A stretch of 64,000 nucleotides of DNA, from the NCBI GenBank assembly GCA_002840735.1, contig PHBY01000006.1, positions 124,001 to 188,000 of the forward strand, read 5' to 3'. The translations under genes and the position numbers were made by a program. This DNA comes from Chloroflexi bacterium HGW-Chloroflexi-2 (lineage in GTDB: Bacteria > Chloroflexota > Anaerolineae > Anaerolineales > Anaerolineaceae). Each line of letters opens with the position of its first letter. Position 1 is the stretch's first letter. The notes beneath the pieces were generated by a model that saw only the letters and a program-made list of their open reading frames with translations, was not told the DNA's origin and did no database searches. This document shows, piece by piece, positions 14,605 to 30,204 of this stretch.

Positions 14605-14605
14605 A

Positions 14606-14629
14606 GGCGGGTTCGGAACCCGCCCGTAC
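14606..14629. repeat. palindromic intergenic repeat (copy A)
   Basis: The core GGCGGGTTCGGAACCCGCC is a near-perfect palindrome and is followed by CGTAC. A closely related palindrome lies at 17014-17042 on the other side of the 26-heme cytochrome gene. The palindrome could act as a terminator-like hairpin for the photolyase gene. Confidence 0.75.
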
Positions 14630-14705: not shown

Positions 14706-16913
14706 TCATGGTATTTCCCAGGTATCCGTCGTGTGGCACTGTGAACATTGCGCGCCTGGATGCTTGGGCGGACGCGTGTGACAGGAACTGCAATTGGTGT
14801 AGCCTGTATGATCAAATGACACCTGACTCCAAGAGGTTGTATTATGACATAACGAACATTCACCCGGGTAATGGCCAGCCGGGCTGGTATGACAGCTGCT
14901 GCAGTTCGTGTACCCGGTATGATTGAAGGTCACATCACTCCAGGTCGTGGTCTTATGACAGAGCGTGCACTCCCCTGGATAATGCCCAGGTTGCGGATTG
15001 TGACAGGTGCTACAGTTCGTATACCCGCTGTGATTGAAATTTACATCACTCCAGGAGAACGTGTTGTGACAAAGCACGCACTCACCCGGATAATGACCGC
15101 TGGGTGCTGTATGGCAGCTGGTGCAATCTGTATACCCTGTGTGGTCAAAGGTTACCTTGCTCCATGAAGAGGTTGTGTGGCAATTAGAGCATTCACCCGG
15201 ATAATGTCCGGGGGGAGGCGTATGACAGGTGCTGCAATACGTATATCCGGTATGATTGAAGGTCACATCACTCCAGGAAAAAGCATTATGACAGTTCGAA
15301 CACAGACCAACATAATGATTAACCGGCGCAGTATGGCAATCTGTACAGGCGAACAAAGTGCTGTGATTGACCGAAATAAGCAACCAGGAATTGGTAAAGT
15401 GACAACTGACACAGGCAGCCGGGTAATGGTTGTCCGGGGTGGAGTGGCAGGTGCTGCAGTTGCTCAGGGTATGGTTGAAGACCGCATTATTCCAGGTGGT
15501 TGTGTTATGGCAGGTACTGCATTGGGCTGTAAACCCCTGGTCAGCGTGGTCAGCTGGTGCCTCGTGGCAGGACATGCAATCTCCCTGTGGACCGTGATTC
15601 ATCAAGACATCACCCCAGGCACTTGTGGAATGGCATTGGACACAATCCCCTGAAAAATGATTGGCGGATGGTATATCCTTGCTGTGACAACCAATACAAG
15701 TGCTAAAACCAGCATGATCTAAAGACACATTACGCCAATCCAGCACATCCTGATGACATCTTGCGCAGAAATTACCATATTCATAAGGATGCCTTTCATA
15801 GATATGACATTCGTTACAATTCGTTTCCCTGGTGCAATCTTCAATCGTTTCACTCAAATCAGTCAGTTGACCGACCAGACCATGGCATCCATCACAAGTT
15901 TCCAATTGATGATCATATCCATTCACACCCCAATCTGTGGTATCGGTGTGGCAGATGGCACAGTCTCCTGGATAATGTGGTGAAACCATGGTATTTCGAT
16001 TTGAAGTACTCAAACTGGCCAATAAGATCTGGTTAGAAGATTCAATTAAGTCTTCCGTTGGATAATCCCCGACATGGCAACACAGACAGGTGTACACTTC
16101 GCGATGATCAAATTGATAAATTCTCCAGGATTTTGTCCTGTGGCAATCGATACAATCCCCACTAAAGTGATAGGGATAATCCTGTTCTAAATATTTCGGG
16201 CGGTAAGAATCAGTCCCTAACCTGGATTCAAAATACACTACTGGAATATGACAATTTGAACATTCGCTGGCTGAATCCATATATTCACCATCCTGATGAC
16301 AATCCATACAGTTTGGTGCATCGCTGTGCATCGATTTGTGTTTCAAGGGTTCTTGTTTGACCACCATGGACTCAACTGCAAGGTTAGGATCATTATAGGT
16401 GAAAAAAATCCTGGAAAGGTAATTTTCGGAAACCAGCTTGACAAGTTCAACCGGGGACGTTGTGTTTTTTAATACAGAAATCTTGTTCTTTAAATACGCT
16501 AAGTGGGCATTCATAAATCTAATTTCAAGATTGGTTACCACCTGCTCAATCCGCCTCATTAATGGCTTAATGTTATGATAATAAATATGGGCAGAATCTC
16601 TGTCGAGATATTGAATATTTAAGATCGCGGTTGTTATTGCTTGTTCAAACGAAACAACAGTAGGTAAGATATCTTCCTGTTGATTTACCATTGCCAAATC
16701 ATCCAGGCGGCGCTCTACAAGCTCAAAACTAAATTCTATTTGTTTTTGGGGATCACTTTTCAGCTTTAATTGGGTATTTTCCACTGCGCTTTGCAGCCCA
16801 AATAAAGCATCTCCGGGCCTATAAGGATGTAATTTCGCTAAAACGACTATGTTGACTACAATTAATAACAGTAAAACGATGGGGGCTATGATTATGATTT
16901 TTCCGCTTTTCAT
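14706..16913 (-). CDS. exported 26-heme c-type cytochrome
   Basis: A very large multiheme cytochrome c of 735 residues with 26 CxxCH heme-attachment motifs. I start it at the ATG at 16913, behind GGACGGA. Residues about 5-27 form an N-terminal membrane anchor or signal. The next 140 residues contain a DUF5667-like helical region (PYRPGDALFGLQSAVE, FSFELVERRLDDLAMV) without hemes. Hemes begin near residue 200. The C-terminal third is a tandem array of 37-residue modules, each with two CxxCH and two further histidines (FNHTGY and GHYPGEC), enough for bis-histidine ligation of both hemes. It ends abruptly at TTDTWEIP. It is the last gene of the cytochrome operon and a paralogue of the 22-heme protein upstream. 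A role in long-range electron transfer at the cell surface is inferred from the heme count. Confidence 0.85.
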   Translation of the reverse strand: MKSGKIIIIAPIVLLLLIVVNIVVLAKLHPYRPGDALFGLQSAVENTQLKLKSDPQKQIEFSFELVERRLDDLAMVNQQEDILPTVVSFEQAITTAILNIQYLDRDSAHIYYHNIKPLMRRIEQVVTNLEIRFMNAHLAYLKNKISVLKNTTSPVELVKLVSENYLSRIFFTYNDPNLAVESMVVKQEPLKHKSMHSDAPNCMDCHQDGEYMDSASECSNCHIPVVYFESRLGTDSYRPKYLEQDYPYHFSGDCIDCHRTKSWRIYQFDHREVYTCLCCHVGDYPTEDLIESSNQILLASLSTSNRNTMVSPHYPGDCAICHTDTTDWGVNGYDHQLETCDGCHGLVGQLTDLSETIEDCTRETNCNECHIYERHPYEYGNFCARCHQDVLDWRNVSLDHAGFSTCIGCHSKDIPSANHFSGDCVQCHSTSAWGDVLMNHGPQGDCMSCHEAPADHADQGFTAQCSTCHNTTTWNNAVFNHTLSNCSTCHSTPDNHYPAACVSCHFTNSWLLISVNHSTLFACTDCHTAPVNHYVGLCSNCHNAFSWSDVTFNHTGYTYCSTCHTPPPGHYPGECSNCHTTSSWSKVTFDHTGYTDCTSCHTAPSGHYPGECVLCHNTFSWSDVNFNHSGYTNCSTCHNPQPGHYPGECTLCHKTTTWSDVTFNHTGYTNCSSCHTSPAGHYPGECSLCHNTTSWSQVSFDHTGYTNCSSCHTRPPKHPGAQCSQCHTTDTWEIP
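14709..15458 (-). repeat. 37-residue (111-base) tandem diheme modules
   Basis: Six full 37-residue units plus a shortened seventh end the 26-heme protein. Each unit has the pattern CxxCH...GHYxGxCxxCH...WxxxxFxHxGYT. Spacing is exactly 37 residues from unit to unit. The DNA is also clearly repetitive, for example GGTCACATCACTCCAGG-like text recurs, which points to recent expansion. Confidence 0.85.
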
Positions 16914-17013
16914 GCATTCCGTCCTTGATTGCACTAATAGCCCCGTCCCTATTCAATTTTCAAATATTATATATTAATTTTAGATTAAAAACCACCTCCT
17001 TTCAATTTTTTTC

Positions 17014-17042
17014 GTACGGGCAGGTTCTGAACCCGCCCGTAC
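17014..17042. repeat. palindromic intergenic repeat (copy B)
   Basis: A 29-base inverted repeat, GTACGGG at its left edge and CCCGTAC at its right edge, with the GGTTCTGAACCCGCC core. It is closely related to copy A at 14606-14629. Together they bracket the 26-heme gene. Confidence 0.75.
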
Positions 17043-17093
17043 ACCTAACCCTGCCCCTATTCGCAAGGACAAAGGTCAACATATGATTGTTAT

Positions 17094-19277
17094 TCATGGT
17101 TCTCCTTGAGCTTCAGTCGGTTCTGGTTCTGTTGTTGGTTCTTCCGTTGGTTCTTCAATCGGTTCTTCTGTTGGTTCAGGTGTTGCTGTCGGTTCTTCTG
17201 TCGGTTCAGGCATGGCAGTAGGTTCTAATGTCGGTGTTGGTGTATTGGTTGAGGTGAAAGTCGGCAATGGTGTATTCGTTGGCAGTGGTGTTGGCGTTGG
17301 TGGGACATACCAGGTCTCAGTCTTGTGGCAATTAGAACATTGCCCACGTGGGTGTCCTAATGGCCGCGCATGGCATGCATTACATAATGTATAACCCGTG
17401 TGATCAAACGTATAATCAGACCAGGAAGTCGTTACATGGCAATTCGAACATTCTCCAGACCAATGCCCATATGGTTTCGGATGACAGGTGCTGCAAGTGT
17501 ACGAAGTGGTGGAATGATTAAAGCTTGAACTCCAATTATCCGTGTTTGTGTGACAGGATTCGCATGTGCCAGGAAAATGAGCGATCGGTGCCATATGACA
17601 ATTTCCGCACACAGTTGAATAACTATTATGATAGGTTTCGGTATACCAGGTGCTCGTGATGTGGCAATCCGTGCACAATCCCGCATAATGATTGCCTGGC
17701 TGGCTGTGACATTCTGTACACACGTTCATTCCAGCATGATTGACAGAAATTTTCAACCAGGAATTGGAGACATGACAGGCACTGCACTCTGCCGGATAGT
17801 GACTGACAGGACTGACATGACAGGTACTGCAATTGCTCAGAGTGTGATTAAAGGTTGTAGGTTTCCACCTTTTTAGTGTGTGACAGGAAACACATTGACC
17901 CACAAATTCACCGGCTCTGTGGTAATCTGGCTGCGTATGGCAGGATTTACAGTCGGCTTTTGTCGTGTGATCCAAAGCCAACGTCTTCCAATTTCCTGTG
18001 ATATGGCAGGTACTGCAATTGCTTTTGTAATGGTCCTCCTCAGGTTTATCCTTCTCGTGACAGGTCATGCAGTTGGGTAGCTCATCATGTTTGATGTCTG
18101 CTGGCAACCATTCTTTCACGTCCTGATGGCAGATTATACAGGCAATTCCTTCATAATAAGAAGGATGTTTCTCATACTGATGACAGGTTTCGCAGGTTTG
18201 TTCGCGGGTACACTCATGAATCTTGCCGTTCATTCCTTCAATAAAACCACGGCTGCCATGACAGCTCTCGCAAGTTTCCATTTGATGATCATAATTGAAT
18301 TCTGCCCAATCCTCCGTATCGGTATGACAGCTGATACAGTCACCCGGATAATGTGGTTCAACGGTTGTTTTAACTTTTGATACAGTCAGTCCGATGAAAT
18401 TGACAGGTCCTGAAGCAATTTCCTGCTCATCCTGTGGATAATCATCATAATGGCAGGAGATACAATCGTACACACCACGATGATCAAATTCTGTCGGTTC
18501 CCAGGAAATGGCATCATGACAATCGGAGCATTCACCTTTGAAGTGGTATGGGTAAACCCGATTACTGCGTTTGATTTCGTAATCCTCAACCTCCGAGATC
18601 ATTGCCAGCACCTGGTCAAACACATGACAGCTGGAACATTCTGTAGCTGTGTCGACGTAAACACCGTTGGCATGGCATTGCTCACATTCCAGGTTTTCGT
18701 GTCCATCCGTCAGGGTGAAATCGATATGATCCACATCCTGACTGAGAAATGGAATGGCTTTAGGAGCAATGATGGAGGGTAAAGTCTGTTGCATCGCCAA
18801 TTTTTGAATCTCTGATGGGGTTGTGGCAGATTGTAAAATGGCTACTTTTTCATGCAGGGCAGCCAGATGCTCATGTTCCATATTTTTTTCCACTGATCCC
18901 AAAACCAGATCGACCCGCAAAAGAAGCGTTTGCACGTCCTGGTAATAATTGGCAGCTTCTACTTCACTGACGGATTGAATGCTAACGATTGCCTGGGTCA
19001 GTACCTGATCAAATGCTTCCACCGCGGGTTTTACCTTATCCGGATCACTGACCATAGCCAGATCAGCCAGTCGCCGTTCTACCAGTTCAAAACTGAGTTC
19101 AACCCGCTTTTCAGGATCTTTTGCCAGTTTCACCCGGCTGCTTTCAGCAGTACTTTGCAGGGCGAACAATGGGTCACCCGGGTGAAAAGGATATGTTTCT
19201 GCCAATAATAGCAGCCCCGCTAATACCAGAAACATAATGGCATTGAGTGCTAATAGTATTTTTATTCCTTGTTTCAT
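17094..19277 (-). CDS. exported 22-heme c-type cytochrome with Pro/Thr-rich tail
   Basis: A multiheme cytochrome c of 727 residues with 22 CxxCH motifs. Residues 5-27 form an N-terminal membrane anchor or signal. A heme-free DUF5667-like helical region follows to about residue 195 (HPGDPLFALQSTAESSRVKL, FELVERRLADLAMV). Hemes are spread between residues about 200 and 650, the last ones in 37-residue diheme modules like those of the 26-heme paralogue. After ETWYVPP comes a tail of about 70 residues made of proline, threonine and glutamate repeats (PTPTPLPTNTPLPT, then EEPTEEPT). This could span a cell wall or S-layer or carry glycans. The start is preceded by AAAGGACGG. It lies between the 12-heme and 26-heme genes on the same strand. 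Confidence 0.87.
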   Translation of the reverse strand: MKQGIKILLALNAIMFLVLAGLLLLAETYPFHPGDPLFALQSTAESSRVKLAKDPEKRVELSFELVERRLADLAMVSDPDKVKPAVEAFDQVLTQAIVSIQSVSEVEAANYYQDVQTLLLRVDLVLGSVEKNMEHEHLAALHEKVAILQSATTPSEIQKLAMQQTLPSIIAPKAIPFLSQDVDHIDFTLTDGHENLECEQCHANGVYVDTATECSSCHVFDQVLAMISEVEDYEIKRSNRVYPYHFKGECSDCHDAISWEPTEFDHRGVYDCISCHYDDYPQDEQEIASGPVNFIGLTVSKVKTTVEPHYPGDCISCHTDTEDWAEFNYDHQMETCESCHGSRGFIEGMNGKIHECTREQTCETCHQYEKHPSYYEGIACIICHQDVKEWLPADIKHDELPNCMTCHEKDKPEEDHYKSNCSTCHITGNWKTLALDHTTKADCKSCHTQPDYHRAGEFVGQCVSCHTLKRWKPTTFNHTLSNCSTCHVSPVSHYPAECSACHVSNSWLKISVNHAGMNVCTECHSQPGNHYAGLCTDCHITSTWYTETYHNSYSTVCGNCHMAPIAHFPGTCESCHTNTDNWSSSFNHSTTSYTCSTCHPKPYGHWSGECSNCHVTTSWSDYTFDHTGYTLCNACHARPLGHPRGQCSNCHKTETWYVPPTPTPLPTNTPLPTFTSTNTPTPTLEPTAMPEPTEEPTATPEPTEEPIEEPTEEPTTEPEPTEAQGEP

Positions 19278-19320
19278 AAAAACCCGTCCTTTCCGGACTT
19301 ATCGTCCCTGTAAGACCTGA

Positions 19321-20490
19321 TCATGGGTTGGCTTGATTCGGTCCCTGGTTCTGTTGTTGAACCGGTTTTTCCGTTGGTTGCGTAATAATGAACGGTGCAG
19401 GCAAATTGGGTTGGGAATCCTCAGGAGCATTCTGCCTGATTTGCTCTGCTTCTCCAACCTGTTGCCCTGGCATGACTGCCTTTCCTCGCCCGGTGGGGTG
19501 ACAGGTAATACAATCCTGGATGACATGAATACCCAGTGAAAAATGCACACTGATAATTTCACCCTCATTATGGCAGGTGCCACACGGGTATTCGGTGTAG
19601 TTGCCACCATGACAGGTTTCACAGGTATCGATCTCTTCATCTCCATGCTTTAACTCGAATTTATGTTGCACCAATACCGCTGGCGTCCAGGCTTGCGTGG
19701 TATGGCAGTATTCACAGGTCGTGCCAAATACGCCAGCATGTAAATCTGGTTCCAGGTGGCAGGTGCTGCAGGTGGTTCCCATCCCCACATATTTTTTCTC
19801 GGTGTGGCAATCCGCACAGGTCAATTCAGCATGCCCGGCTTGCAATGAGAAATAAGGCTGGTGATCAAACCCGTTGATCATGCGATCCTGACCATCATGG
19901 CATTCAAAACAATTAATGCCATACTCTTCAATGTGGGCAGCCAGTTCGTCATGATTACCATCCGAATGACAATGCACACAGTCAATCGTCTCAATGATGT
20001 CACGCACTTTGGTGTGGCAGGTGGTGCAGGTAAATTTCTTACCATCTGTGTTGGTTACGTGCGCCTGAATGGAAAATCCGGTCATGGCGTAATGATCGAT
20101 GTTGGGAAAGGCAAACACGGTCAGATTGGCATCGTGACCCTGATGCTCGGGGTGACAGGTCTGGCATTTGGAGACCCCTGGCAGGCGACCATGAATGGTG
20201 TTGACATCCAGCCGATCCTGCTCAATTTCAAAATGGCAATCCTGACATCTCGAATCGGTCACACAGTGAATGGGTGCATGACAGTGCGAACATTGCCGTT
20301 CCAATTCAGCGTGCGATTTGACACCTCCCAACATCGTGTTTTTCGTTTCCATATTGGATAATTCGCCCGGGCTGAGCAGATAGGATGCGTAGGATTTAAC
20401 ATAATACGCGCCACTGGCAACTAAAACGAAAATAAAAATGATGATAACGCGCATCCACCTGCTCTGTTTACACCAAAATCGCTTAATCAT
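19321..20490 (-). CDS. membrane-anchored 12-heme c-type cytochrome
   Basis: A cytochrome of 389 residues with 12 CxxCH motifs. Residues about 13-33 are a membrane anchor after a basic N-terminus (MIKRFWCKQSRW). Heme motifs run from residue 67 to about 330 (CSHCH, CQDCH, CQTCH and so on). The last four hemes sit in a module (TTQAWTPAVL, CETCH, CGTCH, CITCHPTG) that closely matches the C-terminus of the next protein upstream, the 6-heme cytochrome. The C-terminus is proline/glutamine-rich and heme-free. AAGGAGG precedes the ATG. It probably relays electrons between the Rieske/b complex and the larger cytochromes, by analogy with other multiheme relays. Confidence 0.87.
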   Translation of the reverse strand: MIKRFWCKQSRWMRVIIIFIFVLVASGAYYVKSYASYLLSPGELSNMETKNTMLGGVKSHAELERQCSHCHAPIHCVTDSRCQDCHFEIEQDRLDVNTIHGRLPGVSKCQTCHPEHQGHDANLTVFAFPNIDHYAMTGFSIQAHVTNTDGKKFTCTTCHTKVRDIIETIDCVHCHSDGNHDELAAHIEEYGINCFECHDGQDRMINGFDHQPYFSLQAGHAELTCADCHTEKKYVGMGTTCSTCHLEPDLHAGVFGTTCEYCHTTQAWTPAVLVQHKFELKHGDEEIDTCETCHGGNYTEYPCGTCHNEGEIISVHFSLGIHVIQDCITCHPTGRGKAVMPGQQVGEAEQIRQNAPEDSQPNLPAPFIITQPTEKPVQQQNQGPNQANP

Positions 20491-20548
20491 AGCCCTCCTT
20501 TCCGGGCTGTCTTCAGAGACACCCTATAAATCGAATTAAGAATGGATC

Positions 20549-21463
20549 TCATGGTTTTATCCCCTCTACCGTTGAGGGTTGAATTTTCAACAAACTGGCA
20601 TCCTTCACCAGGCTGGCTTTTTCTTCCAGACTCAATGGATATTTCAAACCAGGATTTTCATCCATCAATCGTCCCGCTTCACCCTCCACACCGGTGGGAT
20701 GGCAGATCGCGCAATTGTCAAATTCTTTGATATCTTCCGCCAGATGGACTTCTTTCATTTCTTCATACTGGTGGTTATCATGGCAAGCATAGCAGTCATA
20801 AACGCCATATTTTGCTGGGTGGCAGGTCTGGCAAGAAACTTCACCCTCGCCACCATGATCCATCAGAAAGATATGGCTGGTTAAAACAGCTGGTGTCCAG
20901 GCTGTCGCGCTGTGGCAACGGGCGCAGTTGATGCCAAACTGATCAGCATGCATCTCGGGTTCTTCGTGACAGGTGGCGCAATGATGTGGATCATCAATAT
21001 CCTCCACATTCATAAAGGTCACCCCACCATTTCCGGCTGCAACGAATGGCTGGCTGGCACCCCGCACCGCGGCCACCTGAGCCACCACCATCCAATCCGC
21101 TTTCTGGATCATGGTCACGACTTCATTCAGCTGGTAATCACTTAAGATGCCACCTTCATCGATATGCCAGGATGCCATTGCTCTACCATGTGTGGCGCGC
21201 GCAATGGATTTGAAGAGCAGATCCGAGCGCGCTTCAATTAATGCTTCACGGTTCAGTCCCGGGATCATACCCACACCTTCACCTGCATTGCCATGACAAC
21301 CGGCGCAGTTCTGCACATAGATTTCAATGCCATCCATCATATACAGGTCATCCAGAGCAACTTTGGCCTGCTGCATACGGTCCTGTTCCATAAATCCATA
21401 CACCGGTAAGGCAATCACCAGAACGAGTAAGGCAACCAGACTGATTATTTTTGTTTTATCCAT
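20549..21463 (-). CDS. 6-heme cytochrome c with N-terminal class I domain
   Basis: A cytochrome of 304 residues. I start it at the ATG at 21463, behind AAGGAG; upstream in-frame TTG and ATG codons lie within the end of the Rieske gene. An N-terminal signal/anchor (IISLVALLVLVIALPVYGF) is followed by a monoheme class I domain (NCAGCHGNAGEGVG, with the methionine in GRAMASWH as a likely axial ligand). A C-terminal part then has five further CxxCH motifs, including the TATAWTPAVL-like module SATAWTPAVL and CAICHPTG. This is a typical cytochrome c1 substitute, expected to accept electrons from the Rieske protein. It follows the Rieske gene directly. Confidence 0.87.
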   Translation of the reverse strand: MDKTKIISLVALLVLVIALPVYGFMEQDRMQQAKVALDDLYMMDGIEIYVQNCAGCHGNAGEGVGMIPGLNREALIEARSDLLFKSIARATHGRAMASWHIDEGGILSDYQLNEVVTMIQKADWMVVAQVAAVRGASQPFVAAGNGGVTFMNVEDIDDPHHCATCHEEPEMHADQFGINCARCHSATAWTPAVLTSHIFLMDHGGEGEVSCQTCHPAKYGVYDCYACHDNHQYEEMKEVHLAEDIKEFDNCAICHPTGVEGEAGRLMDENPGLKYPLSLEEKASLVKDASLLKIQPSTVEGIKP

Positions 21464-21485
21464 TCTATTCTCCTTCTCTCCCGCC

Positions 21486-22010
21486 TTAACCCGGGTAACT
21501 GACATGTTGTGGTAGATGTTGTTCGCGCACAATCGGAGCCGTGGTATCCACTTTCACCATGCCTTTTTCAAAGATCACGGGGAAGTAATCCAGCGCGCGC
21601 GCCACCAGTTTATTGTTGAAATCTCCGGTTTTGGCAAAGGTAGCCGAATGACACGGGCACAGGAATTTCTGTTCATTTTCCATCCAGTTGACCGTGCAGC
21701 CCAGATGCGGGCAACGCCGGTAAACCGCCAGAAAGCCACCATCCTCGGTGGAGATCAGATAGAAGTTACCATCTTCAATCTCCACCACTGAACCCGGGGT
21801 GAACTCTTCAATCTTGCCGATGGTCATCATCCCGCCAAACTCCCCGGCAAGACTGCGTGATCGCAGAAACAGGATCCCAGCAGCGCCTAATTCAATGGCG
21901 GCTAACCCACCCAGGGCTTTTAAACTGAGACTAAGGAAATCACGTCTACTGACATTTTTTGATACACTTGACCCATCCTTTTCAGGATTTTCATTTGTTA
22001 TTTTTTTCAT
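21486..22010 (-). CDS. Rieske iron-sulfur protein of a bc-type complex
   Basis: A Rieske [2Fe-2S] protein of 174 residues. The N-terminus has a twin-arginine export motif (SRRDFLSLSLKALGG) followed by a hydrophobic anchor. The cluster ligands are in CPHLGCTVNW (about residue 105) and CPCHSATF (about residue 125), two cysteines and two histidines, with the two extra cysteines of the disulfide. It would take electrons from quinol at the Qo site of the cytochrome b encoded just upstream and pass them to the 6-heme cytochrome. GGAG precedes the ATG. The 18-base gap from the cytochrome b stop codon supports one operon. Confidence 0.93.
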   Translation of the reverse strand: MKKITNENPEKDGSSVSKNVSRRDFLSLSLKALGGLAAIELGAAGILFLRSRSLAGEFGGMMTIGKIEEFTPGSVVEIEDGNFYLISTEDGGFLAVYRRCPHLGCTVNWMENEQKFLCPCHSATFAKTGDFNNKLVARALDYFPVIFEKGMVKVDTTAPIVREQHLPQHVSYPG

Positions 22011-22028
22011 GTCACTGCTCCCAGATGC

Positions 22029-23393
22029 TTAGAATGGCAATACCAGCGCCATATTCTGGCCGCGGAAGTATATGCCAACAATTGTTAATAGAATTAACCC
22101 GGTCATCATGAATGCGAACACACCCAGCATGGCTTCGCTGTGGTTGGTCTTTTCATTTTTGAATAACAAACCGCTTTTCAAAAGGAAGTAGATCCCCACA
22201 AAAACGGAGATGGTGATCAGGAAGGGAATGACGCCCACGGTGATATTCGTATGCACACCCGGCAACCAGCCCGGTACGTCATACCAGAACTCATCCAGAA
22301 TGACCGCTAACGGCACCAGATACACTGCCAGTAGCGAACCGAATACAGCGGCCCGTCTGCCAATCGCCGAGCGAAAGTAGATGCCGATATCGCGGAAATC
22401 CCGATCGATCCAAGGGATAATCGCCAGCGCAATCACCGCCACCGCCAGCAGACTCATCACCGCCAATGGGTGCATGTGTAATAATAATTCCTGTAAACCC
22501 AGGAAATACCAGGCAGCTTTAGCCGGGTTGGGGGATACCATCGGGTTGGCGATCGAACCCAGCGGCGCCGGGTTTAACATGGCGTATAACCCGACCACCA
22601 CCACTACCACCAGCCCGGCAGCCAGTTCAATGTTGACCAGGTGCGGATTGGTAGCTTTGAACTCCGGTTTCTCATCCTCTTTGAGCAAAGGTTGAGAAAT
22701 GCCGCCGTTTTTGCGCACTTTCCACAGGTGGTAAGCCAGAAAGCCCAATAACAAGGCTGGCATGAAAACCACGTGCAATGCGTAAAAATTACTCAAGGCT
22801 GCCTGACCAACCTGAGGTCCGCCGAGGAAGAAGTTCCGTACTGCTGTCCCAAGCAGTGGAATGTAAGCCATCAAACTGGTGCTGACTGTGATCGCCCAAT
22901 AGGAGAGTTGATCCCACGGTAATAAGTAACCGGTGAAATTCCCTGCTAAAACAATCACAAACAGGACCAAACCGATGATCCAGTTTACGCTTCTTCCCTG
23001 TTTAAATGACCCGGTCAGGAAAACCCGCACCAGGTGTAAAAAGCTGGCAATTACCAGAAAATTGGCTGACCAGTGATGCACTGCCCGTACAAACGAGCCA
23101 AACATCACCTCGGTCTCCAGTTGCTGGATGCTGACATACGCGTATTCCACGCGTGGGTCATAGCGGAACATCAACAGCAGACCGGTCAGTCCCAGTAATA
23201 GCACCAGCACGACAGAGATCCCGCCCAAACCCCAGGTGTAGGTAAAGCGCAAGGCTTGCGCCGGTACCCGGCTGGGGTGCAGATGCAGGATCAGGTTGTT
23301 GCGCACATGAGAATCACGGCTGGGTAGTTCCTGAGCTGCTGTCTCTTTGGGTAACAACCTATCTCGCAATGGTTTGATAAATTCCAGACTCAT
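22029..23393 (-). CDS. cytochrome b of a menaquinol-cytochrome c reductase-like complex
   Basis: A full-length cytochrome b of 454 residues. I use the ATG at 23393, behind AAAAGGA, not the in-frame TTG 21 bases earlier. Heme-binding histidine pairs are in VHHWSANFLVIASFLHLV (helix B) and LHVVFMPALLLGFLAYHLW (helix D). The helix D pair is separated by 14 residues, as in b6f-type rather than bc1-type proteins. The Qo loop reads NPAKAAWYFLG, an AWY variant of PEWY of the kind seen in low-potential menaquinone users. About eleven or more membrane helices are present, so the N- and C-terminal halves are fused. It sits between the FG-GAP and Rieske genes. Confidence 0.93.
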   Translation of the reverse strand: MSLEFIKPLRDRLLPKETAAQELPSRDSHVRNNLILHLHPSRVPAQALRFTYTWGLGGISVVLVLLLGLTGLLLMFRYDPRVEYAYVSIQQLETEVMFGSFVRAVHHWSANFLVIASFLHLVRVFLTGSFKQGRSVNWIIGLVLFVIVLAGNFTGYLLPWDQLSYWAITVSTSLMAYIPLLGTAVRNFFLGGPQVGQAALSNFYALHVVFMPALLLGFLAYHLWKVRKNGGISQPLLKEDEKPEFKATNPHLVNIELAAGLVVVVVVGLYAMLNPAPLGSIANPMVSPNPAKAAWYFLGLQELLLHMHPLAVMSLLAVAVIALAIIPWIDRDFRDIGIYFRSAIGRRAAVFGSLLAVYLVPLAVILDEFWYDVPGWLPGVHTNITVGVIPFLITISVFVGIYFLLKSGLLFKNEKTNHSEAMLGVFAFMMTGLILLTIVGIYFRGQNMALVLPF

Positions 23394-23419
23394 CGTCGTT
23401 TTCCTTTTCAACAATTGAT

Positions 23420-24928
23420 TTATTTAAGAATATTTGGTAAAAAGATTGAAAAAATTTCAACATCCGGAATTCCCGGAATACCAGCATAGTAAGTCATGGC
23501 ACGCCCAACCCGAAATCCGCTGGCTTTGTAGTTTGGCGCTCCCACAATCACATCCAACAAACCATCGTTATTGACATCCCCAGCACTGCTGACCGATGTA
23601 CCAAATTCGGTGTCAGCTTTGTTGCCATAAGTGCTCTCAAAATAATCACCTTTGACACCAATACTGCCACTGCTGCCAAAAAACAAATAGATCGCTCCCT
23701 GCTTTTCATTGCTGACGGAATAAAATGGCACACCTACCAGAAAATCAGCATACCCATCGCCGTTCATATCTCCAGCAGCAGCTACACTCGCGCCGAACAT
23801 GCTTCCGGGTTGATTTGAACATTTTTCCCAGGAAGGTGTCGTGACTAAACCGCTGGAAGAACCCAGATAAAGAAATACACATCCCGCTGATTGGAAAGTA
23901 CCATCGATCAAAACTTTCTTATTGGGTGCGCCTACCAGAACATCATCATAGCCATCGTTGTTAACATCACCAGCACCAGCTACCGTAGCGCCAAACGATG
24001 AACCACCTTTTTCATCCGAACCTCTCCATGAAAACGAAGAAGAGAGCCCACTGTCAGAATTATGATAAACATAAGCATAGCCAATGTTGGCCGGACGAGG
24101 TGCGCCAATAATCACATCGTCGTATCCATCCCCGTTCACATCACCGGCATTATCAACCGCACTTCCAAATAATGCGGCAGAATTTTCACCAAACACTTCC
24201 CAAACAAATTCTGTCGCTAACCCGGAGGCTGAACCCAGATATAAAGAGACTCTGCCATTATTGGTTTTTTCTTCATTATTATAAAAAGGTGTACCTACCA
24301 GAAGATCCGCATACTTTACGACTGCAGATTGATGTTCATTAATGTAACCACTGACCGCTGACCCCAATTTGGCATCTGCCTGATCGCCTAACAAACTCCA
24401 ATCAGCGCTGGTCTTTGCAGTAAAGTTCTGACCTCCATAATACACATAGGCAGCTCCTACTTTCGATTTAGTAACCGTTGAACCATCCAGCAGGTTATAC
24501 TCACAAGCCCCGATAACGATATCATCATAGCCATCAGCATTAACGTCTCCCAGGTAATCGGTTGCGCATCCAAACATCGCTCCTTGTTGTCCACTGCCCA
24601 TTTTCCAATCAGGAAAACTCGACAACCCTCCGCCGGAACTGTAAAATAAGAAGGCTGCCCCTTCCCGGTACAGTGTCAATGTGTGTTTTTGTGCCCCAAC
24701 CAGCACATCCGCTTTTCCATCTCCATTCACATCACCCACACCACTGACCGTGCTGCCCATATTTTCACCCGAATCCTTGCCGTTGAAAAACCAGCTCGGA
24801 TACGACGATAAAATCGTAGTTGTTTCAGCATTTACAATGCTCCAATGGGGTAGAGCAACAGCCATGGATACCACCAGCAAACTGATTGTGATCAGAGATA
24901 AGATTGGGATTTTGGTTTTTATTTTCAT
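23420..24928 (-). CDS. secreted FG-GAP (integrin alpha-like) beta-propeller protein
   Basis: A secreted protein of 502 residues with an N-terminal signal peptide (residues 1-35, ending near VNA). Seven repeats of about 60-65 residues form a predicted seven-bladed beta-propeller. Six of them keep the calcium-binding FG-GAP loop GDVNxDGxxDxxxG (for example GDVNGDGKADVLVG, GDVNADGYDDIVIG, GDMNGDGYADFLVG). One repeat is degenerate (VVKYADLLVGTP). The C-terminus is the hydrophobic tail IFSIFLPNILK, similar to that of the larger secreted protein encoded upstream. Its place inside the cytochrome operon suggests a surface scaffold or binding partner for the cytochromes, which is inference. Confidence 0.85.
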   Translation of the reverse strand: MKIKTKIPILSLITISLLVVSMAVALPHWSIVNAETTTILSSYPSWFFNGKDSGENMGSTVSGVGDVNGDGKADVLVGAQKHTLTLYREGAAFLFYSSGGGLSSFPDWKMGSGQQGAMFGCATDYLGDVNADGYDDIVIGACEYNLLDGSTVTKSKVGAAYVYYGGQNFTAKTSADWSLLGDQADAKLGSAVSGYINEHQSAVVKYADLLVGTPFYNNEEKTNNGRVSLYLGSASGLATEFVWEVFGENSAALFGSAVDNAGDVNGDGYDDVIIGAPRPANIGYAYVYHNSDSGLSSSFSWRGSDEKGGSSFGATVAGAGDVNNDGYDDVLVGAPNKKVLIDGTFQSAGCVFLYLGSSSGLVTTPSWEKCSNQPGSMFGASVAAAGDMNGDGYADFLVGVPFYSVSNEKQGAIYLFFGSSGSIGVKGDYFESTYGNKADTEFGTSVSSAGDVNNDGLLDVIVGAPNYKASGFRVGRAMTYYAGIPGIPDVEIFSIFLPNILK

Positions 24929-24942
24929 TATTACTTTCCCTG

Positions 24943-24974
24943 GGCGCCTGCCCGATCAGGTTCAGACAGGCGCC
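24943..24974. promoter_or_regulatory. GC-rich hairpin between two operon genes
   Basis: GGCGCCTG at 24943-24950 pairs with CAGGCGCC at 24967-24974. It lies in the gap between the large secreted protein gene and the FG-GAP gene. With no T run on the minus strand it is more likely an mRNA-processing or stability hairpin than a full terminator. Confidence 0.45.
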
Positions 24975-24999
24975 ACTCATCATGGGACAGTGAAATTGG

Positions 25000-27900
25000 T
25001 TACTTTGTTGTCAATGGCAAGAAGATCTTGAAGCCAGGCAGATCAGTTGCACTGTTGGCAATGTATTTCTTTACCTTCACAATCTTCGACCATTTGGCAG
25101 GGTCGTCGTTGTCTTTAACCTGCAAGGCAAATTCATACCAACCCAGGTTGTAATTATTCTGCCCTGACCAACCAGGTTGCTGGAATTGATATCCATCCCA
25201 GTGGCCGGAAACTACGCGGGCGGGGGCGTTGCATTGCTTGTCCTGGAAGCAGTCAAAGCCCATATCCTTGAATTCCTCCTGGAATTCAACTGGAACTGCC
25301 ACGCCATTGATCGTCCAGACATACTCCTGGATTGGGTCAAGGCTTTCGTCACCCATCTTATCGAGGTCACGCGCTGTCGCAAGTAGACTGATGATTTGAT
25401 CTTCGGTGACTCCATACACCTCTTGAGAGGTGGCAAGAATGCTCGCAACTGGCGGCAAGTTCACTTCCAGTGTCGTGTCATCCGGCAGATACATTAACCG
25501 TCGGAAGATGATATCGCTGTTGAAAACCAGTTCTTCCTCGTGTTCAAGTCCATATTCATCCACCCAATGGGTGATTTCTTCTTCCCATTGGTTCCAGACA
25601 GAGTACATGAATGTGCCACCCGGGTTCGCCAGCATCCCAGCTTCACCGGATAAAATATCCGATTTGTTTTCCAACCATGGCCAGCGATCGAGAACAAGAT
25701 CATCTTTATCGGTCACATAATCCATTACTTCCCAGACATCGCCATATACGGTTGCCCGGCTGTAATAAAGATCCAATGGGGTGGCTTCACCTTCGGCTAC
25801 AGTGGTGTTGTCACCGGTCTCATAGACCATGAAGAATTTGGATGGATCACGAACGGCATCATCGTCATAAGGCAAGGTGTCACCATAGGTGTTCAAACCA
25901 TACAGGTCAATAAACCAGGTACTGATCGTCGGATAGAGCTTCATACCACCGGTCGGGCTGTAACGCGGATCGAGGATGGTGACTTTGTTACCGGTCAGTA
26001 AGGAAACATTGCGACCCTGTTCAAATTCACCCGCGCCATAGGTCCAGGTCACGGGAACCGGTTCACCGATTTTGGTGCCATAGTAGTATTCCAGATATTC
26101 TGTGCCTTCGCCACCTAATACAGAAGGTGTAGTCGTCCAGGTAGCTCCACCATCAAACGAGCGGCGGGTGTAGAGATTGTAGTGGTCGTTACCAACTGTG
26201 TTGGAGTTCCAGTTGGGAGCCCAGGCGTACATCATCATTACAAAGTCGCCATCCAGGAAACCGCGGTGTCCTTTGGCAACATCATAGGGGTTTTCCCAGG
26301 TCTGGTCATCCAGGTCATTGTCATCCTCACAACCGTCGATGGATGTGCCACCATCACATTGGCGCCATTCGTACACCTTGGGTACTGCTGTTCCATCAGG
26401 GTTACTGCCATCATCTGCCATAGGGAAGGCATCCGCGCAGGTATCGTTATCATTGCCTGCATCACACCGAATGACTGTCGTTCCGGTAATATTGATGGCC
26501 GGTGAGAGACAGACACCCTGCAGGTAATTGGGATTTAAGCCATCGGAGTATGCCCATTCCGCGCATTCCATATTCTCGAAGGCATAGGGGTTGTCTACAG
26601 TTGCATCGAATTCATCCGGAATAAGTGTTCTACGCAGCATGATATCGGCTGGGCCACCCTGGTTGATGATGCCCTGTTTGTAGATCAACATGGCTGATAA
26701 GCCACTCTCTGAATTGACTGCGGCCGAAACCGAGTTGGTGGTCAATGCAAAGCGGCGGGAGATTTCTGTCAGATAATAATCAAAACCACGAGTATCAACC
26801 TGAACATCATAGAACTCACCAACAGTTGTACAGTGTTCGTCGGCTTCATCCTTGCAGACAGCCGGTTGGTTGAGCAGACCACCCTGGTTGACCATGAACT
26901 CATCTGCACCAGTTTTGAATGGGTCAAAGCTGTAATACCAGATATCTTTGCCGATATCAATTGGATCACCATCCTCATCCAAAACCTCACCCAAAGCTTT
27001 CGATTCCTCGGCAGCCATCACCACCCAGGCACTTTTTGTTCCATCTGCAAGTGTGTATGGTTTCAAATTAAGGCGCACACGGGTGGCAGCTACACGTCCA
27101 TTCAAAAGGCGATTGTCTTCTGTGACACACAGTTTGAGTGTTGTTCCACCTGGGTTGAGCCAGTCAACTTGATCAGCGCAAAAGTCAGCATCTGCTTCTG
27201 GGGCTTCTAAATCCAATAATGTCTGAATATTGGTGTGATCTATATCATCAATAGTATCGAAATCAATGTAACAATAAGGGGCACTTGGACTCTTTTCAGT
27301 ACTAGTTCCTTTACACATGGCATTGTCGGTCAGACGAACCGGAGCAGCCATGGGCACATACGGTTTTGGCATTGTGACATCCGTCAGAAGCGCATATTCC
27401 GACATCGGGATTGCACCGATCACATCTTCAGCCGAGAACACAAGATCAAATTCAGCCTGAGAAATATGCGAATACCAGATATCAGTTTGCTGATTGGCAA
27501 CCGCTCCACTCCAGCCTTCACCTGGGCCAAGGCCCTGTCCAGGGCGTAAACCTTCGGGATCTTCCTGCCAGGTCAGGATACAGCCAGCGCCAGCAGCGCA
27601 ATCGACAGCGGGAAGGTTGGCATCGCGTTTTCCAGAGGTCAATCGTTCTGGTTTGGTCCACATCACATATGTGGCTTCCGATTCCGTTGTCGCAGGGTCA
27701 TCGCCAGCCAGTAATTTACCTCGTGCAGTCCAGACACAGGAGAAAGGAATTTCACCTACTTCCGGAAAACCCTGGTCTTTATAATCCACCGAGCTCTGTG
27801 CCCCACCTACACCGAACAGGTCATACAAATACACTGCATCTTTTTCGTAAGTCTCTTCAAGATCAGCGAAGTAATCTGCTTCTTCAACAGGTTTCAAAGA

Positions 27901-28443
27901 ATACAGAGGTGTACCACCTTCGCAGTATTTACCAACCCAGGCAACAAAGATATTGTCATTAAAGACCTGATGCACTACATTATGGACATCACCAGGATAG
28001 GCATAACCATTCTTCAATGTGAAAGATGATAGGTCAGATGAGCGAGATAGATTGGTGGTTTTCCAGGACGTACCATCATCTAATGAGATACCTATAAAGG
28101 CATCAAAATGTCCAAAAGTAACACCACCTTTGGTCTCTTCCACCGGATGCAGATCATCAATCCAGGCAGTTACCAATGGTTTGGCATAGTTACGGGCCTC
28201 ATATCCTGAAGTGGTTTCATCAGCTAATAAGTAGTTATCAACAGGACCAACCAGCCCCGTCGAAGCCTGAGCAGGCACGTAAAAGTCCATCATATAGATG
28301 GCTGCTTTTTCCGTCTCATTATCTGGCGTTTTGGAGATATTCTTTCTAAATAAATCTCCATCCTCCGCCAGCGCCGCACCGACGGTCATGCTGAGCAGCA
28401 TGATAACCGTCAAGAAACTCCACAAAAACTTTTTTCCTTTCAT
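25000..28443 (-). CDS. large secreted Asp-box/PKD-like protein of the cytochrome operon
   Basis: A secreted protein of 1147 residues. I use the ATG at 28443, behind a perfect AGGAGG, rather than an upstream in-frame start. The signal peptide ends at about GAALA (residue 26). Two Asp-box (BNR)-like turns, SLDDGTSWKT near residue 120 and RSFDGGATWTT past residue 750, suggest a sialidase-like beta-propeller without evident enzyme residues. The region is rich in aspartate, tyrosine and tryptophan. Near the C-terminus LPPVASIL...EYVWTINGVAV resembles a PKD domain. The protein ends with GFKIFLPLTTK, a hydrophobic tail like that of the FG-GAP protein. It heads the cytochrome operon. It reminds me of secreted proteins annotated as choice-of-anchor types, which I could not verify. 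The function is unknown. Confidence 0.75.
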   Translation of the reverse strand: MKGKKFLWSFLTVIMLLSMTVGAALAEDGDLFRKNISKTPDNETEKAAIYMMDFYVPAQASTGLVGPVDNYLLADETTSGYEARNYAKPLVTAWIDDLHPVEETKGGVTFGHFDAFIGISLDDGTSWKTTNLSRSSDLSSFTLKNGYAYPGDVHNVVHQVFNDNIFVAWVGKYCEGGTPLYSLKPVEEADYFADLEETYEKDAVYLYDLFGVGGAQSSVDYKDQGFPEVGEIPFSCVWTARGKLLAGDDPATTESEATYVMWTKPERLTSGKRDANLPAVDCAAGAGCILTWQEDPEGLRPGQGLGPGEGWSGAVANQQTDIWYSHISQAEFDLVFSAEDVIGAIPMSEYALLTDVTMPKPYVPMAAPVRLTDNAMCKGTSTEKSPSAPYCYIDFDTIDDIDHTNIQTLLDLEAPEADADFCADQVDWLNPGGTTLKLCVTEDNRLLNGRVAATRVRLNLKPYTLADGTKSAWVVMAAEESKALGEVLDEDGDPIDIGKDIWYYSFDPFKTGADEFMVNQGGLLNQPAVCKDEADEHCTTVGEFYDVQVDTRGFDYYLTEISRRFALTTNSVSAAVNSESGLSAMLIYKQGIINQGGPADIMLRRTLIPDEFDATVDNPYAFENMECAEWAYSDGLNPNYLQGVCLSPAINITGTTVIRCDAGNDNDTCADAFPMADDGSNPDGTAVPKVYEWRQCDGGTSIDGCEDDNDLDDQTWENPYDVAKGHRGFLDGDFVMMMYAWAPNWNSNTVGNDHYNLYTRRSFDGGATWTTTPSVLGGEGTEYLEYYYGTKIGEPVPVTWTYGAGEFEQGRNVSLLTGNKVTILDPRYSPTGGMKLYPTISTWFIDLYGLNTYGDTLPYDDDAVRDPSKFFMVYETGDNTTVAEGEATPLDLYYSRATVYGDVWEVMDYVTDKDDLVLDRWPWLENKSDILSGEAGMLANPGGTFMYSVWNQWEEEITHWVDEYGLEHEEELVFNSDIIFRRLMYLPDDTTLEVNLPPVASILATSQEVYGVTEDQIISLLATARDLDKMGDESLDPIQEYVWTINGVAVPVEFQEEFKDMGFDCFQDKQCNAPARVVSGHWDGYQFQQPGWSGQNNYNLGWYEFALQVKDNDDPAKWSKIVKVKKYIANSATDLPGFKIFLPLTTK

Positions 28444-28860: not shown

Positions 28861-30204
28861 ATGAGCAGACTCGAAATTTCCCTCCTTGGCCCGTTCCGTG
28901 TGCACTTTGATGGCAACGATCTCAGCGATATCCTGCGCACGCGCAAGGAACGCGCTCTGCTGGCGTACCTGGCGGTAGAACCAGCCCGCCTGCAACCGCG
29001 CGAAATGGTGGCTGAGTTCTTCTGGCCTAATCGCCCGGAGACGTACGCGCGCATGAATCTACGCCAGGCCATGCTGGGGTTGCGCAAAGCCTTTGGCGGG
29101 GAGGATCAGATCGCTGATTTTCTGGAGGTCAGCGATGAGTCGATTGAGTTCATGCATAAACAGGTCTGGATGGACACAACCGCCTTCGATGGCTATATCC
29201 AGAGCAGTAAATTGCACCCGCACATCGATCTACACAACTGCCAGGAGTGCATCAATCAACTGGAAGAAGCGGTCGACCTGTATCGTGGCGACTTTTTAAG
29301 CGATTTGATCCTGAATGAGGTCACCGGCTTTCAGGAGTGGGCCGTCTTTAACCGTGAACGCTATTTCCGCAGTATGATTAATGCCCTGCAAGCGCTGGCC
29401 AAAGCCTACTATCACCGCTCCAATTTTGACCAGACATACAAATACGCCTGGCGCTATGTGGAGATGGCGCCGCTGGAAGAAAGTGCCCATCGCTTATTGA
29501 TGCGTCTGCTCACCAAAAGTGGTCGCCGCAACGCCGCCCTGCAGCAATACCAGTTGTGTAAATCGATCATCGAGCGTGAACTGGGCATAGAGCCCTCACC
29601 TGAAACCCAAAAACTGTATACAATGATCCTCAATAATCAACCGATTGAACGCATCGATACCGGTAATCTGGTAGGCAAATTGCCTCAAACGCCGCGTGGT
29701 ACTCGACCTCTGAAACCACCCACCGGTCCGCTGTATGATCCCAACACCGAAATTCCCCTGCGTTCGATCTTTATGGACCGCTTGCGGCATGCCTTGATGC
29801 GTATGAAACGCAATCAGAGTAACGCACTCTTAATTTCGCTAACAGTATCATTCCCCTATCATGAACATTTGCTCCCGGACTTGAAGAAACAGGTGGAAGT
29901 GCTGGTGGTGCGGCGGCTGCTGGGTACCGTGCGCGAGGATGATACCGTAGCGAAGGTCAATGACAATGAGTACGCGCTGGTGTTGGAGGACATTCATAAT
30001 CCCGAAGTGGTACCGGCGATTATCAATAAAATATCAAACGCCATGAATTCTCCGCTGCAGGTTAAGGACCAGCGGGTGCAAACGCGTCTGGCCATTGGCT
30101 GGAGCCTCTACCCGCAGGATGGGCGAGACCCCGCGACCCTGATCAACAAAGCCGATATCGCCATGCGCACCGATCGTCTGCAGCAGAATATACACAAATC
30201 GTAG
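28861..30204 (+). CDS. SARP/BTAD regulator fused to a degenerate GGDEF domain
   Basis: A predicted regulator of 447 residues. Residues 1-95 form an OmpR-like winged-helix DNA-binding domain (LEISLLGPFRVHFDG, RKERALLAYLAVE, MNLRQAMLGLRKAFGG). Residues about 100-255 form the BTAD helical domain (EEAVDLYRGDFLSDL, YVEMAPLEESAHRLLMRLLTKSGRRNAALQQY). A linker is followed by a GGDEF-like fold (residues about 300-445). Where a cyclase has GGDEF, this has NDNEY (within VAKVNDNEYALVLE), so it should not make cyclic di-GMP. It could bind a nucleotide or serve as a dimer platform. It is divergent from the cytochrome operon with about 100 bases between starts and is the natural candidate regulator of that operon. 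That link is inference. Confidence 0.82.
   Translation: MSRLEISLLGPFRVHFDGNDLSDILRTRKERALLAYLAVEPARLQPREMVAEFFWPNRPETYARMNLRQAMLGLRKAFGGEDQIADFLEVSDESIEFMHKQVWMDTTAFDGYIQSSKLHPHIDLHNCQECINQLEEAVDLYRGDFLSDLILNEVTGFQEWAVFNRERYFRSMINALQALAKAYYHRSNFDQTYKYAWRYVEMAPLEESAHRLLMRLLTKSGRRNAALQQYQLCKSIIERELGIEPSPETQKLYTMILNNQPIERIDTGNLVGKLPQTPRGTRPLKPPTGPLYDPNTEIPLRSIFMDRLRHALMRMKRNQSNALLISLTVSFPYHEHLLPDLKKQVEVLVVRRLLGTVREDDTVAKVNDNEYALVLEDIHNPEVVPAIINKISNAMNSPLQVKDQRVQTRLAIGWSLYPQDGRDPATLINKADIAMRTDRLQQNIHKS

What the first reader, a model, noticed from the sequence alone, without database searches (positions are those of the whole stretch)
14706..28443. 66-heme cytochrome operon built on a Rieske/cytochrome b core
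Four multiheme cytochromes with 6, 12, 22 and 26 CxxCH motifs lie on one strand with a Rieske protein, a cytochrome b and two secreted beta-propeller-like proteins. Known bc complexes usually have one or two c-type hemes. The gene set resembles the plan of Geobacter-type cbc complexes but with a true Rieske protein and far more hemes, so it may be an extracellular electron conduit linked to menaquinol. No terminal oxidase or NrfD is present, leaving the electron acceptor open.
Basis: partly seen in the sequence, partly recalled or inferred. Interest (0 to 1): 0.8.

Follow-up and report, generated by a model that had tools for sequence, protein, structure and literature searches.

The report
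Quinol-fed heme wire in Anaerolineaceae
Some Anaerolineaceae bacteria appear to have joined a long chain of iron-containing hemes to the membrane enzyme that taps their respiratory electron pool, probably to push electrons out through the cell wall to something outside the cell.

Summary
In detail: one strand carries two secreted proteins, a cytochrome b, a Rieske protein and cytochromes with 6, 12, 22 and 26 CxxCH motifs (66 in all), with gaps of 18-71 bases (180 before the last gene). The order recurs in the five genus relatives that carry this cytochrome b (one cut by a contig end), with 40-64 motifs in the four whole loci.

It is best read as one machine built from two modules that relatives keep apart: (i) an Anaerolineales cytochrome b/Rieske/class-I cytochrome c complex, and (ii) a c12 + diheme-repeat heme chain that elsewhere in Chloroflexota usually sits beside an NAD(P)/FAD oxidoreductase and a putative di-heme b protein. 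The 6-heme protein is a chimera: its front is the bc-type cytochrome c domain, its back resembles the c12 tail. This is the strongest evidence for one path: quinol, Rieske, 6-heme adapter, c12, c22/c26, outside. Omp85 was not found in the genus, so a porin conduit is not expected.

Rieske/b clusters with several multiheme cytochromes are known (Geobacter ext cluster, Methanoperedens, anammox), and large variable Anaerolineales cytochromes are published. New variant of a known kind; electron direction, acceptor and quinone are untested.

The parts
25000..28443 (-). chO: secreted 'choice-of-anchor O' protein, 1147 aa, N-terminal hydrophobic segment, C-terminus ...FLPLTTK
   Evidence: NCBIfam NF040591 3e-206; start by upstream AGGAGG and ATG; conserved first gene in L101-L104
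23420..24928 (-). FG-GAP protein, 502 aa, N-terminal hydrophobic segment, predicted integrin-type beta-propeller, C-terminus ...FLPNILK
   Evidence: PF01839 1.3e-52, six stretches; second gene in L101-L104 and L106
22029..23393 (-). cytochrome b, 454 aa, b6-like and subunit-IV-like parts fused; nine hydrophobic segments; H-x13-H and H-x14-H pairs; no cysteine
   Evidence: PF00033 3.1e-44; pairs and hydropathy; no Cys; tree
21486..22010 (-). Rieske [2Fe-2S] protein, 174 aa, twin-Arg-like N-terminus (RRDFL), CPHLGC...CPCH
   Evidence: PF00355 3.2e-10; motif read
20549..21463 (-). c6 adapter, 304 aa: N-terminal class-I cytochrome c domain (1 heme) and C-terminal five-heme domain like the c12 tail
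   Evidence: chimera shown; start
19321..20490 (-). c12, 12-heme cytochrome, 389 aa, N-terminal hydrophobic segment
   Evidence: motif spacing identical in the window, G001, G007, G005 and G002
17094..19277 (-). c22, 22-heme cytochrome, 727 aa: N-terminal hydrophobic segment, DUF5667 part, heme array, Pro/Thr-rich tail
14706..16913 (-). c26, 26-heme cytochrome, 735 aa: N-terminal hydrophobic segment, helical part, heme array ending in 37-residue diheme repeats
   Evidence: AlphaFold2 only moderately confident for about residues 5-160
14774..15293 (-). tandem array, period 111 bp (37 codons, two hemes), 4.7 copies, inside c26
   Evidence: Tandem Repeats Finder; units read
14605..14625 (-). terminator-like hairpin (9 pairs, 6 G-C) after c26
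   Evidence: consensus scan only
28861..30204 (+). divergent BTAD plus degenerate GGDEF regulator, probable regulator of the operon
   Evidence: Pfam; VNDNEY in place of GGDEF; kept beside the operon in L101-L104
30935..33269 (-). response regulator and dCache/HAMP histidine kinase pair, possible second regulator
   Evidence: Pfam; both in L101 and L103, response regulator in L102, kinase also in L004; G002's contig ends before this place

Best explanation
The operon encodes one membrane machine that takes electrons from the quinol pool and carries them out through the wall of a cell with no outer membrane. Cytochrome b and Rieske oxidise quinol (Q-cycle, inferred from the family). The Rieske cluster reduces the class-I heme of the c6 adapter, which passes electrons into its five-heme part, then to membrane-anchored c12, then to the long c22/c26 heme arrays that reach outward to an acceptor (mineral, humic substance or partner cell; unknown). 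The two secreted proteins probably sit at the surface as scaffold or contact. Shown here: genes, motifs, gene order in relatives, the chimera of c6, two separable modules. Inferred: complex formation, electron direction, surface location, acceptor.
For: Order chO-FGGAP-cytb-Rieske-c6-c12-giant cytochrome in 4 of 4 relatives with a whole locus (G001, G007, G005, G002) and, as far as the contig goes (to c12), in G006, down to about 62% identity in cyt b. c6 is a chimera: its front aligns at 42% over 125 aa to the first domain of the class-I cytochrome of G046; in a database of 25 c6-like proteins plus window c12 and c22, its back hits only the 7 genus-operon c6 entries, c12 (45% over 97 aa) and weakly c22, and 0 of 18 c6-like proteins from outside the genus operon. 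Motif spacings agree (18-31-13-27 and 18-31-13-24). Identity to the window falls along the proposed path in G002/G007: cyt b 63/85, Rieske 64/83, c6 53/88, c12 49/76, giant 40/69 (c22; c26 46). No Omp85 in 8 of 8 genus genomes, 7 of 14 controls ringing; a c-heme assembly family in 8 of 8. An oxidase and a Qrc/ACIII-like cluster lie on other contigs and could serve aerobic respiration separately.
Against: No expression, protein or electrochemical data. AlphaFold2 failed on the heme parts (mean pLDDT 30.5 and 37.3), so heme stacking is untested. c26 is not intact in G001, and G005 and G002 have a single giant cytochrome, so 66 hemes are not a fixed requirement. In G001 the gradient is slight (92 to 86%) and its FG-GAP protein is 93% identical; chO (60-81%) does not follow the gradient anywhere. 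chO occurs in three other Chloroflexota without a gene of two or more CxxCH in the stretches read. Two of 8 genus genomes lack the cyt b. Electron direction is not fixed by sequence and the quinone is unresolved.
Confidence: 0.6

Rival explanations
1. Same hardware run in reverse or both ways: electrons enter from outside (Fe(II), reduced minerals, a partner cell) and pass through the heme chain and the bc core into the quinone pool, or to the oxidase.
For: A COX1 oxidase is encoded; the close relative KA20 is listed with coxA, sqr and hyaB and called aerobic, from a mud volcano (PMC8470020 passages). A filamentous Chloroflexi isolate passes anodic and cathodic current (PMC5808234 passages). 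Reverse-running bc complexes are known in some iron oxidisers (recalled).
Against: No oxidase or donor-oxidising enzyme gene among the eight genes; nothing in the sequence favours this direction.
Confidence: 0.17
2. An ordinary complex III for aerobic respiration with a heme store: c6 reduces the oxidase, while c12/c22/c26 act as a capacitor rather than a conduit.
For: The b/Rieske/c parts are homologous to the plain cytb-Rieske-three-heme operons of order relatives; an oxidase is present.
Against: c6 has one class-I domain where relatives have several, and a c12-like part instead; a Qrc/ACIII-like cluster is present as another route; the oxidase lies on another contig (C35 versus C26).
Confidence: 0.12
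3. Selenite/tellurite or other oxyanion reduction, as the ExtP/ExtQ profile names suggest.
For: Best NCBIfam name for cyt b is ExtP (1.3e-79); ExtQ also matches (1.6e-14).
Against: Both are below curated cut-offs (266.9 of 290; 54.3 of 150); the ExtP profile rings in 8 of 14 control genomes, one above its cut-off, so it is a general cytochrome b signal; no ExtN match for the cytochromes at E up to 10.
Confidence: 0.03
4. Neighbouring but separate systems: a bc complex and an unrelated set of cytochromes that merely share an operon.
For: Each module occurs alone in relatives.
Against: Gene order is kept in the six genus genomes with this b gene (one truncated), and the chimeric c6 joins the two modules.
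Confidence: 0.08

Closest known systems
Geobacter extKLMNOPQS / conserved bc cluster GSU2937-2930 (PMC5877670 and PMC2825233, passages)
   Same: Rieske, b-type cytochrome and several multiheme cytochromes (12, 10, 5, and 4 or 2 hemes by paper) in one cluster; proposed as the quinol-oxidising complex of Geobacter
   Different: There cyt b is split into ExtP/ExtQ, here fused; no porin, rhodanese or selenoprotein gene among the eight here; cytochromes do not match the ExtN profile at E up to 10. Geobacter sequences themselves were not compared.
Methanoperedens Rieske/cytb cluster with two pentaheme cytochromes (PMC4683180, passages)
   Same: Rieske/b core with extra multiheme cytochromes, expressed at similar levels
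   Different: Archaeal; pentahemes; assigned to nitrate reduction
Anammox Rieske/cytb complexes with hexa- or octaheme cytochrome and NAD(P) oxidoreductase (PMC12954380, passages)
   Same: Multiheme cytochrome in place of cytochrome f
   Different: Hexa/octaheme proteins, no long arrays described in the passages seen; anammoxosome membrane
Large Anaerolineales multiheme cytochromes with varying motif number (PMC7399161, passages and Fig. 5 legend)
   Same: Probably the same family as c22/c26: motif number varies, gained or lost in pairs or multiples, nearest sequences from Japanese deep boreholes; no outer membrane conduit expected (sequences not compared here)
   Different: The main text has no occurrence of Rieske, cytochrome b or operon
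Cytb-Rieske-multiheme three-gene loci of Bacteroidota, Gemmatimonadota and others
   Same: Fused cyt b 36-47% identical, Rieske mostly next, multiheme cytochrome next
   Different: One cytochrome, mostly of 540-890 aa with 7-8 motifs; their cyt b rows form a separate 64-row clade (100/100)

Membership tests
Rieske/cytochrome b (bc) complex | cytochrome b with two pairs of transmembrane histidine ligands | tested here: met
   H-x13-H at 113 and H-x14-H at 214 of the 461-aa frame, at hydrophobic segments; PF00033. That these are the ligands rests on family knowledge.
Rieske/cytochrome b (bc) complex | Rieske 2Fe-2S protein with both Cys/His motifs | tested here: met
   PF00355 3.2e-10; CPHLGC...CPCH
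Rieske/cytochrome b (bc) complex | c-type electron acceptor subunit | tested here: met
   class-I domain of c6: QcrC-like 1.3e-7 (below its cut-off) and homologous to the c subunit of order relatives
b6f-type complex | cysteine holding the extra heme on cytochrome b6 (recalled) | tested here: not met
   no Cys in cyt b
Geobacter ext (selenite/tellurite) cluster | ExtP and ExtQ profiles above curated cut-off | tested here: not met
   266.9 of 290 and 54.3 of 150 bits
Geobacter ext (selenite/tellurite) cluster | ExtN-type multiheme cytochrome | tested here: not met
   no ExtN match for c6, c12, c22 or c26 at E up to 10 (filters drop most weak matches); the model is in the library
Geobacter ext (selenite/tellurite) cluster | ExtO Rieske | tested here: inconclusive
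   NF040968 gave no match in the genome but rang in no control either, and it hits the same stretch as the ExtN model, so it may not model a Rieske
   no Cbc sequence was compared
Porin-cytochrome conduit | outer membrane with a porin | tested here: not met
   no Omp85 in 8 of 8 genus genomes, 7 of 14 controls ring; no porin match among the eight genes
Polymeric cytochrome nanowire (OmcS-type) | polymer of cytochrome subunits | not testable with these tools
   no usable model

The most novel reading that the evidence does not exclude
Chloroflexota use an interchangeable heme wire: a c12-type cytochrome, often with a diheme-repeat cytochrome, that can be plugged into either of two inner engines: an NAD(P)H-fed flavoprotein with an undescribed di-heme b membrane protein, or, in this genus, a quinol-fed Rieske/b complex, with c6 evolved as the plug by replacing bc-type domains with a relative of the wire's tail. 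Wire length changes by adding mostly three-heme units to c12 and two-heme units to c26.
Probability: 0.45. Interest if true: 0.78.

Novelty: new variant of a known kind. Interest (0 to 1): 0.6.

Why it matters
How cells without an outer membrane move respiratory electrons through their wall has been worked out in only a few organisms (recalled; an example, OcwA, is in the listing, PMC6703420). This locus names a complete candidate path in Anaerolineaceae, couples it to a quinol-oxidising complex that should conserve energy, and gives a direct test, the chimeric c6 adapter. It also suggests that heme chains are reused with two different electron donors.

Tried and rejected
AlphaFold2 of c26 (5-row alignment) and c12 (3 rows): mean pLDDT 37.3 and 30.5; only the N-terminal part of c26 (about residues 5-160, block means 53-84) is usable, so no fold search was run. 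PDB sequence search of c22: one match, to the Pro-rich tail and not the hemes. PDB search of the side-lead membrane protein: none.

Ext identity: dropped because the profile is not specific and cut-offs are not met; the ExtO profile test is uninformative.

chO as a marker of electron export: rejected. In the class search 7 of 199 genomes match, 4 above cut-off, the window's own genome counted in both; in the other three above cut-off (G188, G152, G062) no gene with two or more CxxCH was seen in the stretches read. The three weak ones were not read.

Strict 'multiples of three' for c12: not claimed as a rule. Of 34 c12-type proteins 26 have 9, 12, 15, 18, 21, 24 or 30 motifs, 8 have 14, 16, 17 or 38; some are cut by contig ends.

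Papers: two searches returned nothing; PMC11976967 and PMC10553843 held only a citation of the ExtI paper for my terms; PMC5317091 and PMC10052568 gave background only.

Rows dropped: cyt b tree, 17 of 101 candidate rows (two duplicates, the rest short or unfound frames, listed). The collection scan had 247 relatives and kept the best 80. c12 neighbourhoods: 31 regions read; matches at G055 and G040:C140 and G278:C219 were not fetched. Part of the output was cut; the same loci were shown again.
Full report
What is there. The window is part of contig 26 of a 4.1-Mb, 99.87% complete genome held without a name. The nearest named matches of its cyt b are MAGs: Anaerolineaceae KA20 (95%), HGW-Chloroflexi-3 (92%) and Anaerolineaceae E6 bin 151 (86%). 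On the minus strand, in order of transcription: chO, FG-GAP protein, cytochrome b, Rieske, 6-, 12-, 22- and 26-heme cytochromes. With corrected starts the gaps are 71, 26, 18, 22, 58, 43 and 180 bases (it printed 19 for the fourth, one codon before the ATG of c6). A terminator-like hairpin follows c26 and a promoter-like site lies in the 180-base gap before it; both are consensus matches only, and such matches exceed the shuffled mean over the whole region (36 against 23.5; 21 against 12.8). Each of the four cytochromes has one N-terminal hydrophobic segment, fit for a membrane anchor or signal.

Conservation inside the genus. Cyt b occurs in 6 of 8 genomes of the genus (G000, G001, G002, G005, G006, G007); of the 29 other genomes of the family searched one, 64% complete, has a match, at 37%. 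The gene order is kept in G001, G007, G005 and G002, and in G006 as far as its 6.9-kb contig goes. CxxCH totals are 66 (window), 64 (G007), 42 (G005), 42 (G002) and 40 (G001). Behind c22, G001 has five c26-like motifs in two frames among stops. In a 14-row tree the seven Rieske-linked giant cytochromes form one group (100/100); within the G000/G001/G007 lineage (five rows, 99/97) c22 and c26/c24 are sister groups, so c26 and c22 are duplicates, and c26 has the long branches (1.03 and 1.09 against 0.06-0.25). A BTAD plus degenerate GGDEF regulator is kept divergently beside the operon in the four whole loci.

Two modules. (A) Order relatives G049, G043, G060 and G046, and a second locus in G002, carry cytb-Rieske-three-heme operons with no giant cytochrome in the stretch read; in G002 the three-heme protein is three class-I cytochrome domains. 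In an 84-row cyt b tree the genus operon is one clade (6 rows, 100/100); the 20 Chloroflexota rows, these included, lie outside a 64-row clade (100/100) of Bacteroidota, Gemmatimonadota and others. In 55 of those 64 a cytochrome with 7 or 8 CxxCH is among the next three genes on the strand. The root is by midpoint only. (B) c12-type proteins match in 7 of 8 genus genomes, 2 of 29 other family genomes and 8 of 24 other order genomes, and in 19 of 301 phylum genomes at 1e-10. I read stretches of up to 20 kb around 31 such loci outside the Rieske operon: 25 hold both a Pyr_redox_2-type flavoprotein and a 184-321-aa membrane protein, mostly adjacent, 2 the flavoprotein only, 4 neither; none holds a match to the window's cyt b or Rieske at 1e-5; 10 of 31 also hold a c22/c26-type cytochrome. 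Loci L194 and L208 look like near-copies from one genome, so the 31 are not all independent. Genus genomes G002 and G007 have both kinds of locus, G003 only the flavoprotein kind; in the window's genome the c12 search found only this operon.

The adapter. c6 joins the modules. Residues 23-160 of its frame match the first domain of the class-I cytochromes of order relatives (42% over 125 aa in G046, 43% over 118 in G060). Residues 161-327 were searched against 25 c6-like proteins and the window's c12 and c22: they hit the 7 genus-operon entries, c12 (45% over 97 aa) and weakly c22, and 0 of the 18 c6-like proteins from outside the genus operon, some of which are incomplete. The CxxCH spacing of the two tails is nearly the same. 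A subunit that is half bc-complex and half wire is hard to explain unless electrons pass from one to the other.

The wire. c26 ends in 37-residue units, nearly all with two CxxCH and two further His; the last 14 hemes take 17.3 residues per heme, the heme region 20.2, the whole protein 28.5. PMC7399161 quotes 22.4-23.4 residues per heme for dense Burkholderiales cytochromes and 25.1 for MtrA (passage), perhaps on another basis. The DNA keeps a 111-bp tandem array of 4.7 copies, 67% matching. Across the loci read, c22/c26-type proteins have 13 to 34 motifs apart from one cut by a contig end (10) and one of 47 that is c22-like by best match only; c12-type proteins have 9 to 38, many differing by inserted three-heme units of 16-18-32 spacing. 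Variation in motif number in large Anaerolineales cytochromes, gained or lost in pairs or multiples, is already published (PMC7399161, passages).

Cell envelope and respiration. Omp85 was not found in 8 of 8 genus genomes, agreeing with a cell without outer membrane; a c-heme assembly family was found in 8 of 8. The genome also encodes a COX1 oxidase, a cluster with QrcA/B/C-like subunits (below curated cut-offs) and an NrfD, and further multiheme loci. So the organism probably respires oxygen too and has another possible way from quinol to cytochromes. menB was above its cut-off in none of 8 genomes, with weak matches in two; which quinone is used is open.

Reading. The simplest account of the gene order, the chimera and the envelope is an outward conduit fed by quinol through a Rieske/b core. 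Direction, acceptor, surface location and complex formation are inferred. The most serious rivals are the same device used for electron uptake, or a complex III with a heme store.

Novelty. Rieske/b clusters with several multiheme cytochromes are known from Geobacter (PMC2825233 calls the role of the multiple cytochromes novel and in need of study), Methanoperedens and anammox bacteria, so the kind is known. What I did not find described, in nine keyword searches of an open-licence library only, of which I opened twelve papers and read passages, is this Chloroflexota arrangement, the chimeric adapter, or the use of the same kind of wire with two cores.

Noticed in passing
L148:12027-14172 and 24 further loci: Near c12-type cytochromes across Chloroflexota sit a Pyr_redox_2 flavoprotein and a membrane protein; the L148 copy of the latter has no Pfam, NCBIfam or PDB match. 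Its histidines H41, H80, H94, H237, H240 and H254 are invariant in 25 of 25; H80/H94 and H240/H254 have the x13 spacing of di-heme cytochrome b. Candidate NAD(P)H-fed electron export system.
   Followed up: partly
C-termini of window 25000-28443 and 23420-24928; L101-L104, L106, L188: The two secreted proteins, most of their homologues in the genus and one protein of L188 end in a similar short tail (FLPLTTK, FLPNILK, FLPLVQR, FLPAIQNNP, YLPVVVR), possibly a sorting signal.
   Followed up: no
L005-L081: A widespread three-gene arrangement cytb-Rieske-multiheme cytochrome (mostly 7-8 CxxCH) in Bacteroidota, Gemmatimonadota, Latescibacterota, Acidobacteriota and Desulfobacterota-type genomes.
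   Followed up: partly
L101:14361-15800 (G001): Decayed remnants of a c26-type gene behind c22.
   Followed up: partly
L141:8845-15549 (own genome, contig 17): Second multiheme locus: a cytochrome b561-type protein with three cytochromes of 9, 7 and 10 motifs; CbcL-like in plan (recalled).
   Followed up: no
L080 (Chloroflexi J111): A 12-motif, 921-aa cytochrome lies three genes from a split cyt b-Rieske-four-heme operon, an independent pairing of a large cytochrome with a Rieske/b core.
   Followed up: no
NCBIfam NF040968: The ExtO (Rieske) model is 416 positions long and hits the same stretch as the ExtN model with nearly the same score, so it may be built on the wrong protein.
   Followed up: no
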